Source: Caldicellulosiruptor danielii (GTDB taxonomy: Bacteria; Bacillota; Thermoanaerobacteria; Caldicellulosiruptorales; Caldicellulosiruptoraceae). From it: 64,000 nucleotides of DNA. The stretch lies in NCBI RefSeq assembly GCF_034343125.1, contig NZ_CP139957.1, forward strand, positions 2,164,001-2,228,000, read 5' to 3'. The stretch's first letter is position 1. Each line of letters opens with the position of its first letter. Under the pieces are notes generated by a model, which saw only the letters and a list, made by a program, of their open reading frames with translations, was not told the origin of the DNA and searched no databases. The position numbers were made by a program, and so were the translations under genes. Of this stretch, positions 19,947 to 59,876 are shown in pieces.

Positions 19947-20888
19947 TTACTTCTTCATCTTCATAACCTCTTTTGCTTTATTTACAATCTCCTGTGCTGT
20001 GAGCTTGTAGTATTTCAAAACATCCTCAGGCTTTCCTGACCTGCCAAATTCGTCATTTACACCAACCATCTTAACAGGTACAGGATAGTTTTGAACCAAA
20101 ACCTCAGAAACAGCACTTCCAAAACCACCAAGGACATTGTGCTCCTCTGCTGTTACAATGCAGCCAGCTGTCTTTGCCATATCTAAAATCAAATCAACAT
20201 CAATTGGTTTTATACACGGCATGTCAACAAGATATACTGAAATTCCTTCATCTTGAAGCATCTTTGCTGCTTTTATCGCTTCGTGGACCATAAGCCCTGT
20301 TGCCAGAATTCCAACATCTGTACCTTTTTGAAGAACAATGCCTTTTCCAAGCTCAAGTTTTCGTTCACCTTTCTTGTAAATCTCCTCAACTCCAAGTCTT
20401 CCTAAGCGAATATAAACAGGTCCTTCATGCTCAATTGCAAGCCTTACACATTCATATGTTGATGTTGCATCAGAAGGTGATAGTACCACCATGCCAGGAA
20501 TTACCCTCATCAAGGCTATATCTTCAAGCATCTGATGTGATGCACCGTCCTCGCCAATTGACACACCTGCATGTGATGCTCCAATCTTGACATTAAGATG
20601 CGGGTATCCAATGGAGTTTCTCACCTGGTCATAGGCTCTTCCTGCTGCAAAGACAGCAAATGTGCTTGCAAAAGGAATCTTGCCACATGTTGCAAGCCCT
20701 GCTGCTGTTGCCATAAGGTCTTGCTCTGCTATTCCTATATTGAAAAATCTATCAGGAAACTTCTTTTTGAAAATCTCTGTCCTCGTAGATTTTGAAAGGT
20801 CTGCATCAAGTACAACAATGTCTTTGTACACTTCACCAAACTCAGCCAGTGCTTGACCATATGCTTCTCTTGTTGCTATCTTTGCCAT
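19947..20888 (-). CDS. Transketolase, C-terminal subunit
   Basis: A 313-residue protein with the pyrimidine-binding and C-terminal domains of transketolase. Motifs are IGIAEQDLMATAAGLA (the catalytic Glu region), ASTFAVFAAGRAYDQVRN and VTAEEHNVLGGFGSAV. It pairs with the N-terminal subunit gene directly upstream (1 nt apart). The split form is common in Firmicutes and archaea. It joins the pentose-phosphate pathway and would use pentoses such as xylose released by GH31. Confidence 0.92.
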   Translation of the reverse strand: MAKIATREAYGQALAEFGEVYKDIVVLDADLSKSTRTEIFKKKFPDRFFNIGIAEQDLMATAAGLATCGKIPFASTFAVFAAGRAYDQVRNSIGYPHLNVKIGASHAGVSIGEDGASHQMLEDIALMRVIPGMVVLSPSDATSTYECVRLAIEHEGPVYIRLGRLGVEEIYKKGERKLELGKGIVLQKGTDVGILATGLMVHEAIKAAKMLQDEGISVYLVDMPCIKPIDVDLILDMAKTAGCIVTAEEHNVLGGFGSAVSEVLVQNYPVPVKMVGVNDEFGRSGKPEDVLKYYKLTAQEIVNKAKEVMKMKK

Positions 20889-20889
20889 C

Positions 20890-21738
20890 TTATCCTTGCA
20901 CCTCCAAGTTTTCTAACTGCTTTTGTAGCTCCTCTAAAGCCTTTTGAGCCTGCTCTTTATTTGGAGCTGTGCCATGCCAGCCAACTTCATTTTCCATAAA
21001 CGATACGCCTTTTCCTTTTACTGTTTCAGCAATTATGATTGTTGGTTTTCCTTTCACTGTCTTTGCCTCAGCAACTGCCTTTTCAATCTGGTTAAAATCA
21101 TGACCATCAATTTTTATAACATGCCAGCCAAATGCTTTAAATTTCTCATCAACAGGCTCAGGGGACATAACCTCTGTTATTTTACCATCTATCTGAAGCC
21201 CATTGTGGTCTAAAAATGCTGTGAGATTGTCAAGCTTGTAATGTGCGGCTGTCATTGCAGCTTCCCAAATTTGTCCTTCCTGGATTTCTCCATCGCCAAG
21301 CAAAACATATACTCTATAGTCTTTCCCATCCAGCTTTGCAGCCAATGCCATACCGTTTGCAACAGACAAACCTTGCCCCAAAGACCCTGTTGACATCTCA
21401 ACCCCAGGCACCTTTTTCATGTCAGGGTGGCCTTGGAGATTTGAATAGATCTGCCTAAAACCTTTCAGCTCCTCCTTGCTTATGAAACCCTTTTCAGCCA
21501 AAACCGCATACAAAAGCGGGGATGCGTGTCCTTTGGAAAGAACAAACCTGTCCCTGTCTGGGTCTTTTGGATTTTTAGGGTCTATTCTCATCTCAACAAA
21601 GTAAAGATATGTCAAAATCTCAACACCAGAAAGTGAACCGCCAGGGTGACCAGAGCCAGCTTCAGCTGTTTGAATAATTATACTCTTTCTTATTTCAGTT
21701 GCTATCTTTTTGAGCTCAAGCTCCTTTGCCTTGTCCAT
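20890..21738 (-). CDS. Transketolase, N-terminal (ThDP-binding) subunit
   Basis: A 282-residue subunit holding the thiamine-diphosphate pyrophosphate domain. The motifs seen are [14 protein letters not shown], the [14 protein letters not shown] block and the ThDP/Mg motif [13 protein letters not shown]. The C-terminal part includes [17 protein letters not shown]. It forms a heteromeric enzyme with the following gene. Shine-Dalgarno GGAGG precedes the ATG. Confidence 0.92.
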
Positions 21739-21841: not shown

Positions 21842-22693
21842 TCAAACAGAAAAACCTTCACCTAAAACCTCACGAACATCTGTTAAAATCACAAACGCTT
21901 TCTGGTCAATGCTTTTTACAAGATTCTTAACACGGCTTACCTCATGTCTTTTGACAACACAAAGCAGCACGTTTTTCTCTGTCCTTGTCCACATGCCAAT
22001 GCCATGAAGACCTGTAACACCTCTGTCAAGCTCTTTTAGAATCTTCTCTGCGATTATGTCTGATTTGTCAGAGATTATTATAAGTGCTTTTGCAAAGTTG
22101 ACACCTTCTAAGATAGCATCCATTACCTTTGAACATGCAAAAAGAGTCAAAACTGCCCAAAGTCCAAGCTCATAGTTTTTAAATACTATAGAAGCCATTG
22201 CAATTACAGCAACATCAAGTCCTAAAAGAATCTGTCCAACTGAGATAAAGGAGATAAATTTATGAATAATCCTTGCAAGCATCTCAGTTCCACCAGTTGT
22301 TGCCCCGTATAAAAGTACAATGGCAAGTCCCAGTCCCATTAGCGCTCCACCAAAAACTGAAGCAAGTAGTTTATCATATGTAATACATGGCAAAAAAGTT
22401 GTCAGGTCTGTCAAAACTGAAAGAACTATTGTACCGTACACACTCTTTACTCCAAAATCTACTCCAATTGTCTTCACACCCCAAATAAAAGCAGGAATAT
22501 TCAAAGCAAGCATTGTCATACCGACAGGAAGTTTGTAGTGAGAAACATAATATACAACTGTTGCAATACCAGAAAATCCACCAGCTGCAATCTTATTTGG
22601 AACAAGAAAAAGGTTTAAAGACAGTGCAACCAACAGTGAACCAAGTGTTATAGCAATATATTCGTAAATAATTCTGAAAATCTTTTTTAGCAT
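21842..22693 (-). CDS. YitT-family (DUF161/DUF2179) membrane protein
   Basis: A 283-residue protein with five or six N-terminal membrane helices (about 10-195) and a C-terminal DUF2179 domain (about 215-275, including ITDVREVLGEGF). The VPNKIAAGGFSGIA and YGATTGGTEMLARI segments are typical. Function in the family is not well established. It starts 1 nt before the CsaB-TagA stop, so the genes are probably co-transcribed. Nothing in the sequence tells whether it helps wall synthesis. Confidence 0.85.
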   Translation of the reverse strand: MLKKIFRIIYEYIAITLGSLLVALSLNLFLVPNKIAAGGFSGIATVVYYVSHYKLPVGMTMLALNIPAFIWGVKTIGVDFGVKSVYGTIVLSVLTDLTTFLPCITYDKLLASVFGGALMGLGLAIVLLYGATTGGTEMLARIIHKFISFISVGQILLGLDVAVIAMASIVFKNYELGLWAVLTLFACSKVMDAILEGVNFAKALIIISDKSDIIAEKILKELDRGVTGLHGIGMWTRTEKNVLLCVVKRHEVSRVKNLVKSIDQKAFVILTDVREVLGEGFSV

Positions 22694-24532
22694 CTATCTT
22701 CCCCCAAATAGTTTAGTTTTCAAAACAACAAATACAAACTTGGGAAGTGCCAGCATTCTTTTGAATCTCCAGGGCTGGGTAATTAGTCTATAAAACCACT
22801 CAAGTCCAAGTTTTTGGAAAATCCTTGGCGCTCTTTTGACCTCACCTGATAGTACATCCAAACTTCCACCAACGCCCATAATGAGCTTGCAATTTAGCTT
22901 CTTTTTATTTTTGTAAATCCACTCTTCTTGCTTTTTCATGCCCATTGCAACAAAGACTACATCTGCTTTTGAGGAGTTTATAAGCTCTATCACCTTTTCG
23001 TTTTCCTCTTGTGAAAAATAACCATGGTGTGTACCACAGATACTTAAGTTTTTAAAAGTCTTTAAAAGATTTTCTTTTGCCTTTTCAGCAACTGAAGGCT
23101 TTGCACCAAGTAAGAACACCCTTTTTTTATGTCTTTCAAGCTCTGGCATTAGCGCCATCATCAGGTCAAAGCCAGTAACCCTTTCAAACAGCTTTTCATC
23201 AAAATATTTTGACGCCCACACAACCCCAATTCCATCTGGAACATTTAAATCGCTTGAGTTAAGAATCTTTTTAAACTTCTCATCCTTTTGCGCAAGCATA
23301 ATCATTTCTACATTTGGAGTAAAAACAATATGAGGTGATGAGGAATTTAAAAACTCAAGACACTTTTCTTTTGCCTTTCTAAAGTTTACACAATCAATCC
23401 TCACACCTAAGATGTTTATGCTATCTTTCTTTTTAATATTACTCAAGGCATCTTCTAATATCTCAAAGGCTTTTTCAGCTTTCTGAGTCATGTTTTTTGT
23501 AATCTCTTCAATCTTTTTTGTCACTTTTCCCTCAGATAGCATATATTGAATGTTGATCAACACATTGTTTACATCGAAACTGTCTACATATCCTGCAGGT
23601 TTAAATCCATATATTTTTAGAAAACTGTCAATCTTTGGGTCATAGGAAATACCAATGAACCTAACACCCATCTTTGCTGCAAACACAAGAGCGTGAAGCC
23701 TCATCCCAACTACTAAATCCAATTTCTTAAAAATCCCTAAAAGCTCATGAGCAGATAATTTTTCACTCAGTACATACGGCCTATTTTTCATCTTTGAGAC
23801 AATCTCATTTATCTTGATTATGTCCCACTTGCCTTGAAAAGGAATAAATACAACATTGTACCCTTCATTTTCTATAAGAATGTCAGCAATCTTTGCAATT
23901 TTGTCAGTCATGTTTTTTTCTTTTTTCCATTTTCTTACCACAATGCCTATGGTCTTCTTACTAAAGTCTATTTTATACTCTTCTAAAAGTTTTTGTATTT
24001 TTTGCTCGCAGCAAGGATTTAACAAAAAGGCAGGGTCTGCTGAAAGTTCAATATCTTTATCTATCCTTAGCTTATGCAAAAAATCAAATGAGTCATAATC
24101 TCTTACTGTAATATAATCTGCAAGTTTTATTACATGTTTGAAAAGAAGTATATTATACCACCTTTTAATGGGCCCAATTCCTTGAGAAAAAATAAAAACC
24201 TTTTTGCCAAAAAGCTTTGCAAGAAAGATCTGAAAAAGGTAATAATAAAGACTTCTGTTACTTGTCTCATTCTGAAAAAGACTTCCCCCGCCAGAAATAA
24301 AAATATCACATCTTTTAATTGCTTTTATAACAGAAGGAATCTTTTTCCTGTTGACAGACTCTACATTATAAAGCTTTGCTGTCAGCTCTGGTCTTGAAGA
24401 CAACACAACTATATTTAAACTGCTATTGCTCTTTCTTTCATACTCCTTCAGTTTATCAACCAAAACCCTTAAAATTGCTTCATCACCAGTATTTAATTGT
24501 CCATAATATCCTGATATAACAATATTTTTCAT
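22694..24532 (-). CDS. csaB-tagA: CsaB-TagA fusion: pyruvyl transferase joined to WecG/TagA glycosyltransferase
   Basis: A 612-residue two-domain protein. Residues about 1-365 are a polysaccharide pyruvyl transferase of the CsaB type: N-terminal ISGYYGQLNTGDEAIL, the middle GGGSLFQNETS and the GMRLHALVFA block around 276. Residues about 371-612 are a WecG/TagA/CpsF glycosyltransferase with FTPNVEMIMLA, VPDGIGVVWA, RVTGFDL and GAKPSVAEKA. In SCWP biosynthesis TagA adds ManNAc to the lipid-linked GlcNAc and CsaB adds the 4,6-linked pyruvate to that ManNAc. The pyruvylated sugar binds SLH domains. The two steps would act on the same lipid-linked intermediate at the inner membrane face. No membrane helix is needed. 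It is the only such pair I saw. Confidence 0.88.
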   Translation of the reverse strand: MKNIVISGYYGQLNTGDEAILRVLVDKLKEYERKSNSSLNIVVLSSRPELTAKLYNVESVNRKKIPSVIKAIKRCDIFISGGGSLFQNETSNRSLYYYLFQIFLAKLFGKKVFIFSQGIGPIKRWYNILLFKHVIKLADYITVRDYDSFDFLHKLRIDKDIELSADPAFLLNPCCEQKIQKLLEEYKIDFSKKTIGIVVRKWKKEKNMTDKIAKIADILIENEGYNVVFIPFQGKWDIIKINEIVSKMKNRPYVLSEKLSAHELLGIFKKLDLVVGMRLHALVFAAKMGVRFIGISYDPKIDSFLKIYGFKPAGYVDSFDVNNVLINIQYMLSEGKVTKKIEEITKNMTQKAEKAFEILEDALSNIKKKDSINILGVRIDCVNFRKAKEKCLEFLNSSSPHIVFTPNVEMIMLAQKDEKFKKILNSSDLNVPDGIGVVWASKYFDEKLFERVTGFDLMMALMPELERHKKRVFLLGAKPSVAEKAKENLLKTFKNLSICGTHHGYFSQEENEKVIELINSSKADVVFVAMGMKKQEEWIYKNKKKLNCKLIMGVGGSLDVLSGEVKRAPRIFQKLGLEWFYRLITQPWRFKRMLALPKFVFVVLKTKLFGGR

Positions 24533-24807: not shown

Positions 24808-25509
24808 CTATCTTTTGACCTCACTTCCGTAAGGACAGACCCTCATGCATATACCACAAACCTGGCCACGTCCTATATACTTAAACTTTTCTTTCATGTA
24901 AGTGCTACATGCATGGGGGTCTATCATATCATTTCTATCAATACCCAAGTACCATGTGCTGCCACGAAGTGCCTGTGCTGGACAGCTTATAATACAGAGA
25001 TTGCACTGTCCGCATTGAGGCTCTATTATATGATTTTCAATCTTTTCTTCTGGTTCATATGTTGTAAGTATTGTTCCAAGCCTTACCCTCGGACCAAATC
25101 TATTGTGAACAAAAAGGTTGTTTTTCCCTATAAACCCCATGCCAGACAAAACTGCTCCTATTTTGTGAGATAAAACTCCTGAAAACCCATTGTCTTTGCC
25201 ATGGACACTTTGGGATGTTGCAACGCTCATTGCAAAATAGCCTTTCGACTCTAAAAATAATACTCCTTTTAATGTCAAAAGATCAATGAGGTTATTTACT
25301 GCCTTGTAATGGTGGTAATATGTAAATGTGGGAGAATCCACAATTTCATTTACAATAGCGTCAGAAAGCCTCACAACCACAGTTATGCAAGTTTTAAACA
25401 TTTTTAGTTCAGCCGGAAGGTATTCATGTATATTTGAAATACCAACATCACTTGCACCTTCTTTAATTAGCATTTCCTTTAGATCTTTTAAGATCATATT
25501 GAAAATCAC
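24808..25509 (-). CDS. QueG-like [4Fe-4S] protein (short)
   Basis: A 233-residue protein with two ferredoxin-type clusters: CGQCNLCIISCPAQAL and CGICMRVCPYG. The N-terminal part shows SQSVHGKDNGFSGVLSHKIGAVLSG and GFIGKNNLFVHNRFGPRVRLG, both similar to epoxyqueuosine reductase. It is shorter than full-length QueG (about 310-380 residues). So it may be a partial or divergent relative acting on another substrate. It lies 8 nt downstream of radA on the same strand. Confidence 0.7.
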   Translation of the reverse strand: MIFNMILKDLKEMLIKEGASDVGISNIHEYLPAELKMFKTCITVVVRLSDAIVNEIVDSPTFTYYHHYKAVNNLIDLLTLKGVLFLESKGYFAMSVATSQSVHGKDNGFSGVLSHKIGAVLSGMGFIGKNNLFVHNRFGPRVRLGTILTTYEPEEKIENHIIEPQCGQCNLCIISCPAQALRGSTWYLGIDRNDMIDPHACSTYMKEKFKYIGRGQVCGICMRVCPYGSEVKR

Positions 25510-57624: not shown

Positions 57625-59876
57625 TTATTGATAAATAAGGTCATAAAGTCTATAAATCATAACTGCCATTTCAGCTCTTGAAATTTTCTCTTTGGGCTTA
57701 ATTTTCCCATTGCTTCCTTTCACAATCCCAAGGGAAATTAGCCTTTCTACACTTGACTTTGCATATCCAGATACATCTTTGAGATCTGAATACATATTCA
57801 CTTTGTTTGTATCAACAGAAACATTCCCTACTCCTGCCAATTGCAAACACCTATCTATTAACACCATTGCATCTTCTCTCTTGATAGCTGCCCTGGGATT
57901 AAATAAACCACCATTTGTTCCTGTTACAATCCCCAGTTTCTTTGCCACTGCAATCCCTTCATAATAATAATCATTTTCTTTTACATCACTAAACATCGCA
58001 ATATCATTGGTATCTGCTCTCAGCCCCAACGTTCTTACTAACAACAATGTAGCATCTGCCCGTGTAATTTGAGTCATTGGTGCAAATTTACTATCACTTA
58101 TTCCTTTTATTATACCTTTTGAAGCCAAGATTTCTATCTCCTTCTTCGCCCAACTTATATCCTGAATATCTTCAAAACTTTTCTTCACAAAACCTACTCC
58201 AAACTTTGATAAATGAGCTGTACTAAATTCTACAATTCTCTCCTCTCCTTTGTATCTACCACTTGGATTAACTTCTAACCTCCCGTCATCTTTTATTTCC
58301 CATATTACAATGTGCTCATAATCACTTAACTCCTCCCCAGAAGGCAAATATGGTATCCTCACAACAACCTTGGTATCTACACTTTCCCATTTATACTCTT
58401 TAGCCCCATTACTCACTTTTATGTCAACCACAGGTCTTGTTCCAATTTCCTTTCTAACTGTTTCATTTAATGTTAGCGGATCAACTTTACTAATTGTTAT
58501 TCTTATCGCAGACGAACTAATTTCTCCTTTACTTACAAAATTACTTGGTAACTCTATTTCGCCTATGGATGTCGAAACACAAATTTTGCTATCTAACTTG
58601 TTCTTGCTGATATTTTCGGTTGGCAACTCAATTTCAAACTTGTTAATACCTTTCTCTCCACTCACTTCAACTTTTACTGTCTTTATGCCCTTGGAGTCAA
58701 CTTGAGCACTCTTAAACAACTCATTTAAGTAATTTGCTCCAATTTTTATACTAATTGTGTCCCCTACTTTCTTTTGAACAACTCCACTTACACCCTCCTG
58801 CTGAGCTTGCTGCGTACTTGTCGATTTCTTCACCAATCCTTTTATAGCATTGTCAAGTAAAGAAAATGCATTGTTGACATCAGCTTGAGTCGCATTCGGA
58901 TTATTATAAACTTTCTCTGCATTAGCTATCGCGTCTTCTAATGCCCTTATACTTTCCTCTGTATACTCGCTCTTGTTTATACCTTTAGCAGCATCTATCT
59001 TGCTCCTTAAACCACTTTTGTCAACCACAATTATTATTTGAGTTGGTATTCCTGTTGTTGTAGGCTTTGAAACAAGTAACTTTAAAGCGTTCTGCAGAGC
59101 TCCTACTGCTGCATTCACTTCTTCCTGTGTAGCATAGCTGTTGTTATAAACCTTCATCGCTTCATTCAATGCTTTCTCCAAAATACTCCAGCTCTCCGAT
59201 GTATAACTATCTTTATTCAAACTCTTTGCCTGATTTATTAAATTGCCAAGTAAACTCTTGTCAACCTTCTTCACCTCAAATGTCTTGGCAACCACTATTT
59301 CACCCTGTCCTACTACCACTGTATATATACCTTCGCTATAGCATCCCATGGTATTGTTATCTTGTCACTGAAATTGCCGCTTACTTTCAATGTGTTCAAA
59401 TATAATACTGTTTGATTTGGTCTTAAAATTTTTATTGTTATCTCTTTTAGCGTAGTATACCCACTGATTGTTACTTCCTGCCCAGGATACTTAAAAGAAA
59501 TATCATTCAGAGTTATAACCTCACTTGCTGATGGCACCTTTGCAACATTAAATGTCCTAATCCCAACCTCACTTCCCTGCCCTACCACAACTGTATATAT
59601 TCCTTCCTGTGCATCAGCTGGCAACTTCATCTTATCATTAAATTCACCATCTAAAACCTTAACAATGTTGAGATACAAAACTGTTTGATTTGGTCTTAAA
59701 ATTTTAATAACTACTTCATTGAAGTTGCTTACTCCACTTACCGTCACTTCATCCCCTGGCTTCTTGTCAGCTATATAGTTTATAATAACCGAATCTTGCC
59801 CAGAGAATGCTATGGGTGTTAACATTAGGATAAATATCAATATACACCACATAGCAATGGCCCTTTTTATCTTCAT
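57625..59876 (-). pseudogene. SLH-domain surface protein with FIVAR repeats, frameshifted
   Basis: Two frames that belong to one gene. The 5' part (59313-59876) gives a signal peptide (about residues 1-25) and two about 80-residue Ig-like repeats sharing IKILRPNQTVLYLN. The 3' part (57625-59349) begins out of frame at EGIYTVVVGQG, then two FIVAR-type repeats (NKDSYTSESWSILEKALNEA and NKSEYTEESIRALEDAIANA), a middle region, and three SLH domains near the C-terminus (FEDIQDISWAKKEIEILASK, MFSDVKENDYYYEGIAVAKK, MYSDLKDVSGYAKSSVERL). A two-base TATA expansion near 59336-59339 explains the shift. SLH domains bind pyruvylated wall polymer, linking this protein to the CsaB-TagA gene. It may bind polysaccharide at the surface. 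Confidence 0.85.

What the first reader, a model, noticed from the sequence alone, without database searches (positions are those of the whole stretch)
22694..24532. One protein joins the ManNAc transferase and the pyruvyl transferase that make the SLH ligand
The ORF fuses a CsaB domain (about 1-365) to a TagA/WecG domain (about 371-612). From studies in Paenibacillus, TagA-type enzymes add ManNAc to lipid-linked GlcNAc and CsaB then ketal-pyruvylates that ManNAc. The fusion therefore puts consecutive reactions on one chain and suggests channelling. The window also holds an SLH protein that would use the product. The order (pyruvyl transferase first in the chain, although it acts second) is notable.
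Basis: partly seen in the sequence, partly recalled or inferred. Interest (0 to 1): 0.75.

Follow-up and report, generated by a model that had tools for sequence, protein, structure and literature searches.

The report
Fused cell-wall ligand enzyme, CsaB–TagA
One bacterial protein joins the two enzymes that other bacteria use one after the other to make the sugar tag that holds surface proteins on the cell wall; it is a real, conserved gene fusion of known parts, made where the two genes already lay side by side.

Summary
The protein is a CsaB pyruvyltransferase (PF04230, 14-299; TIGR03609 above cut-off) joined to a TagA ManNAc-transferase (PF03808, 427-593; 54% identical to T. italicus TagA of known structure). 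It is not a frameshift artefact: the ORF is intact in 13 of 13 genomes of the order, with dN/dS about 0.08 in both halves. The PEP-site residues of P. alvei CsaB and the catalytic residues of T. italicus TagA are all kept. The genome has no other csaB; the second WecG-family gene is divergent and lies in a capsule cluster. TagO, MnaA, two LCP ligases and 16 SLH ORFs complete the pathway. In relatives of the class csaB and tagA are separate but adjacent, csaB first, in some only one in-frame stop apart. The domain order is therefore the ancestral operon order. It also leaves TagA's C-terminal membrane appendage free. The same fusion arose in at least two to three other lineages of the phylum. 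Channelling is untested; membrane co-localisation and one-to-one dosage explain the fusion equally well. New variant of a known kind, moderate interest.

The parts
22694..24532 (-). csaB::tagA fusion gene, 612 aa
   Evidence: intact in 13/13 genomes of the order
23453..24532 (-). CsaB half, residues 1-360 (ketal-pyruvyltransferase); PEP-site residues R144, R200, R278, H280, K300
   Evidence: PF04230 14-299, TIGR03609; residue mapping to P. alvei CsaB R148/R207/R306/H308/K328 (PMC10435577)
23420..23452 (-). junction, residues 361-371 (SNIKKKDSINI region): very short linker, no conserved internal ATG or Shine-Dalgarno-like motif
   Evidence: dN/dS 0.14 against 0.08 in the domains
22697..23419 (-). 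TagA half, residues 372-612 (UDP-ManNAc:GlcNAc-PP-lipid transferase) with T405, D433, Y505, D559 and the C-terminal appendage R582, R589, R592
   Evidence: PF03808 427-593; alignment without gaps to 7mpk/5wb4; residue mapping
21842..22693 (-). yitT-family membrane protein gene, start codon abutting the fusion gene's stop; conserved neighbour, no known role in the pathway
19947..21738 (-). split transketolase genes (N half 20890-21738, C half 19947-20888), also downstream of csaB-tagA in relatives with separate genes; marks the shared ancestral location
57625..59349 (-). SLH protein (three SLH repeats, FIVAR repeats), a likely user of the ligand

Best explanation
The gene encodes a bifunctional enzyme of secondary cell-wall polymer synthesis. 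The TagA half moves ManNAc from UDP-ManNAc onto GlcNAc-PP-undecaprenol made by TagO. The CsaB half, tethered at TagA's N-terminus, then forms the 4,6-pyruvate ketal on that ManNAc from PEP while the disaccharide is still on the lipid. After export and LCP ligation the pyruvylated ManNAc is bound by SLH proteins. The fusion arose in place by loss of the csaB stop codon in an existing csaB-tagA operon. Its most likely benefit is one-to-one dosage and keeping CsaB at the membrane through TagA's C-terminal appendage, so that each ManNAc is pyruvylated; true channelling is possible but not shown. Shown here: sequence, conservation, residues, gene context and history. Inferred from characterised relatives: both activities, product and SLH use.
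For: Domain calls; TagA half aligns without gaps to T. italicus TagA 7mpk/5wb4, 54% identity. T37, D65, Y137, Q167, D191, R214, R221 and R224 are all kept (30; PMC6493773, 26). R148, R207, R306, H308 and K328 of P. alvei CsaB are all kept in 13/13 (62; PMC10435577, 60). P. alvei TagA then CsaB act on the lipid-linked disaccharide and the genes are co-transcribed. The genome has one csaB only; the second PF04230 hit is DprA (7, 34). TagO beside, not within, the mur cluster, MnaA one copy, LCP two, 16 SLH ORFs. Fusion in 13/13 of the order, both halves under purifying selection. Separate adjacent csaB-tagA in the rest of the class, some in the same frame with one stop between.
Against: No assay of any fused protein was found. 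The TagA half does not reach the NCBIfam TarA equivalog cut-off (221 against 350), so its sugar donor rests on similarity to T. italicus TagA. The CsaB acceptor-site residue F16 is Q or N, and the neighbouring invariant Asp is Asn, throughout this family (62), so the acceptor may differ. The wall polymer of these bacteria was not found described.
Confidence: 0.85

Rival explanations
1. Neutral stop-codon loss: the two enzymes work exactly as when separate, and the fusion persists without any advantage of tethering or channelling.
For: Operon neighbours one in-frame stop apart are common in relatives (L025, L026, L042, L043, L045-L047), so one mutation suffices. All fused proteins have the operon order. 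Several linkers are short and dissimilar.
Against: The fusion was kept in all 13 genomes of the order down to 60% identity and arose separately at least two to three more times, which hints at benefit but does not prove it.
Confidence: 0.35
2. Substrate channelling: the lipid-linked disaccharide passes from TagA to CsaB within one chain.
For: Consecutive reactions. In 13/13 of this family and in most f65/f74 fusions the acceptor residue F16 is replaced (Q/N, M), against F in 32 of 37 separate CsaBs; F16A/R raises the acceptor KM in P. alvei, as might be tolerated if the acceptor is delivered locally.
Against: The replacements amount to only about two lineages, so the association is weak; other fused lineages keep F. 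The intermediate is membrane-bound anyway. No reliable structure of the fusion could be predicted.
Confidence: 0.2
3. The enzyme serves another pyruvylated polymer (capsule or exopolysaccharide), not the SLH ligand.
For: PF04230 enzymes also pyruvylate other glycans; the acceptor-site residues differ in this family; a capsule cluster with an SLH protein exists elsewhere in the genome.
Against: It is the only CsaB in a genome with 16 SLH ORFs, scores above the CsaB equivalog cut-off, and is not in the capsule cluster.
Confidence: 0.08
4. Sequencing or frameshift artefact joining two genes.
For: None found.
Against: Intact in 13/13 genomes with low dN/dS across the junction.
Confidence: 0.01

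Closest known systems
Paenibacillus alvei CsaB and TagA (PMC6030368, PMC10435577)
   Same: Same two families, consecutive reactions on the lipid-linked disaccharide, csaB directly before tagA and co-transcribed; all PEP-site residues kept
   Different: Two separate proteins there; acceptor-site F16 is Q/N here
Thermoanaerobacter italicus TagA (PDB 7mpk, 5wb4; PMC6493773)
   Same: 54% identity over 233 aligned residues, no gaps; catalytic and appendage arginines kept
   Different: A free-standing protein; no N-terminal CsaB
Adjacent csaB-tagA gene pairs of the same class (L025-L041) and L042
   Same: Same order, same downstream yitT and/or split transketolase in the two examined
   Different: Stop codon between the genes; DUF5693 gene upstream in 20 genomes, missing in the fused family
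CsaB-TagA fusions in other families of the phylum (L055-L057, L059-L062, L091)
   Same: Same domain order in one open frame
   Different: 30-45% identical; tree places them apart from this family, so separate fusion events

Membership tests
CsaB (SLH-ligand pyruvyltransferase) | TIGR03609 equivalog score above cut-off | tested here: met
   281.3 bits, cut-off 213.1
CsaB (SLH-ligand pyruvyltransferase) | PEP-site residues R148, R207, R306, H308, K328 (P. alvei) | tested here: met
   R144, R200, R278, H280, K300, invariant in 13/13; mapping by conserved motifs, P. alvei sequence itself not aligned
CsaB (SLH-ligand pyruvyltransferase) | Acceptor-site residues Y13, Y14, F16, R66, T94 | tested here: inconclusive
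   Y, Y, R, T kept; F16 is Q or N
CsaB (SLH-ligand pyruvyltransferase) | Pyruvyl transfer to ManNAc-GlcNAc-PP-lipid | not testable with these tools
   needs enzyme assay
TagA (GT26 UDP-ManNAc transferase) | PF03808 domain and residues T37, D65, R221 with C-terminal appendage | tested here: met
   236 bits; T405, D433, R589, R582, R592
TagA (GT26 UDP-ManNAc transferase) | NCBIfam TarA equivalog NF041710 cut-off | tested here: not met
   220.7 bits against 350; that model is built for teichoic-acid TarA, so this speaks against calling it a teichoic-acid TarA, not against TagA-type activity
TagA (GT26 UDP-ManNAc transferase) | ManNAc transfer to GlcNAc-PP-lipid | not testable with these tools
   needs enzyme assay
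SLH-anchoring pathway | TagO, MnaA, LCP ligase and SLH proteins in the same genome | tested here: met

The most novel reading that the evidence does not exclude
The tether delivers the lipid-linked disaccharide to CsaB so effectively that its own acceptor site has been allowed to decay (F16 to Q/N/M), making this a genuine channelling two-step enzyme that fixes full pyruvylation of the SLH ligand.
Probability: 0.12. Interest if true: 0.6.

Novelty: new variant of a known kind. Interest (0 to 1): 0.38.

Why it matters
The fusion is independent genomic support that TagA and CsaB act on the same molecule, one after the other, as shown for one Paenibacillus. It offers a single-protein system, from what looks like a thermophile, for studying ketal-pyruvylation, whose bacterial enzyme structure has not been solved as far as the PDB sequence search and papers read here show. 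It may help to explain how bacteria with many SLH-anchored enzymes keep their wall ligand fully pyruvylated.

Tried and rejected
Structure prediction of the single sequence gave mean pLDDT 47 and pTM 0.33, not usable, so no fold search and no statement about the relative placing of the active sites. The genome-contig scan with the whole protein returned only distant Patescibacteria TagA relatives, so organism names of the relatives are unknown. The second PF04230 hit was rejected as DprA. The second WecG-family gene was rejected as a backup TagA: 36% identity to T. italicus TagA, T37 replaced by Ala, capsule cluster, in 5 of 13 genomes. An internal start for a separate TagA was looked for at the junction: no ATG with a ribosome site seen. 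Some open frames over 600 aa proved to be separate genes (L090, L094-L098).

Full report
The finding's ORF is real and lies on the minus strand, from the ATG at 24532 to the stop at 22694-22696, 612 aa. The plus strand reading is full of stops. A GGTGA-type ribosome site precedes the ATG, and the next gene, a YitT-family membrane protein, begins directly after the stop.

Residues 14-299 match the whole PS_pyruv_trans profile and residues 427-593 the WecG/TagA/CpsF profile. The CsaB equivalog model is passed (281 against 213 bits); the teichoic-acid TarA equivalog is not (221 against 350). In the PDB the only sequence matches are T. italicus TagA structures, aligned from residue 371 to 605 without gaps, 54% identical over 233 residues.

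Residues: the T. italicus TagA residues reported as catalytic or substrate-binding (T37, D65, Y137, D191, R221; PMC6493773) and the appendage arginines R214 and R224 all have identical counterparts; R205 is Gln. The P. alvei CsaB residues whose mutation abolished or changed PEP use (R148, R207, H308, K328) and R306 (PMC10435577) are all present in 13 of 13 fused proteins. The mapping rests on conserved motifs because the P. alvei sequence was not at hand. One acceptor-site residue, F16, is Gln in twelve and Asn in one; the neighbouring Asp, invariant in all 37 separate and 8 other fused CsaBs compared, is Asn in all 13.

The genome (2.82 Mb, one contig, 99.5% complete) holds no other csaB: the second PF04230 hit is below cut-off and is DprA. 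It has a second WecG-family gene at C1:2427.8 kb, in a cluster with a Bac_transf initiating transferase, GDP-mannose dehydratase, CpsB and glycosyltransferases; this paralogue is in 5 of 13 genomes and lacks the T37 equivalent (by eye). Other pathway parts are there: two Glycos_transf_4 genes, of which one adjoins a MurF-like gene and reads as MraY and the other as TagO (by eye and context), one UDP-GlcNAc 2-epimerase, two LCP proteins and SLH repeats in 16 ORFs, one in the window.

Comparison: all 13 genomes of the order, two genera, have the full fusion at 60-100% identity. Nei-Gojobori dN/dS among 12 is 0.08 in each domain and 0.14 at the junction (pairs with saturated or very low dS left out). 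Of the other 24 genomes of the class, two have neither gene, and those with matches have csaB and tagA as separate neighbouring ORFs, csaB first (one genome on a broken contig shows csaB only). In several the two genes overlap by four bases or are in the same frame with one or two stops between. In G021 the order DUF5693-csaB-tagA-yitT-transketolase N-transketolase C, and in G386 DUF5693-csaB-tagA-transketolase N-C, matches the downstream order of the window, so the fusion happened in place.

In an even sample of 398 genomes of the phylum, uninterrupted CsaB-TagA frames were also found in families f65 (five genomes), f74, f64 and f117; the list was cut, so this is a lower bound. Trees of each half group this family with its class relatives and G386, and the other fusions elsewhere: f65/f74 together, f64 beside an unfused relative with 99% SH-aLRT in both trees (L062 with L090), f117 apart on a long branch. 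The fewest changes are four on the CsaB tree and three on the TagA tree. This means at least two to three more fusion events; quick trees with some long branches, so the exact number is uncertain. Every fusion seen has CsaB first.

Mechanism: P. alvei TagA and CsaB were shown to act in sequence on a lipid-linked GlcNAc acceptor and the genes are co-transcribed (PMC6030368). The order of domains follows the order of genes. It also leaves free TagA's C-terminal appendage, which is needed for activity and membrane binding; a TagA-CsaB order might hinder it. That is inference. Because the intermediate is on undecaprenyl diphosphate, tethering at the membrane and equal dosage are enough to explain a benefit; channelling is not shown.

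Literature: four searches for the fusion or for CsaB together with Caldicellulosiruptor found none; this library holds open-licence papers only.

Noticed in passing
L103, L104 and genomes G015-G036; absent in G000-G012: A DUF5693 (PF18949) gene lies directly upstream of csaB in 20 of 24 class relatives and is absent where csaB is absent (G019, G020), but no copy above cut-off exists in any of the 13 genomes with the fusion. It may be a polymerase or transporter of the wall polymer that this family replaced.
   Followed up: partly
L092 1248-3485 (-), genome G102: A different fusion: a GT4 glycosyltransferase joined to the N-terminus of a CsaB domain, 746 aa.
   Followed up: no
22760-24532 (-) residues 12 and 88: Acceptor-site residue F16 (P. 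alvei numbering) is Q/N and an otherwise invariant Asp is Asn in all 13 proteins of this family.
   Followed up: partly
L028-L033: The tagA genes most like T. italicus TagA (88-92% identical) lie directly after csaB, so the solved 'teichoic acid' TagA probably belongs to the SLH-ligand pathway.
   Followed up: partly
24808-25509 (-): A short Fe-S protein resembling part of QueG and reductive dehalogenases, far below both cut-offs, conserved between radA and the fusion gene in L071 and L072.
   Followed up: no
19947-21738 (-): Transketolase split into two genes, conserved beside csaB-tagA in distant relatives too.
   Followed up: no
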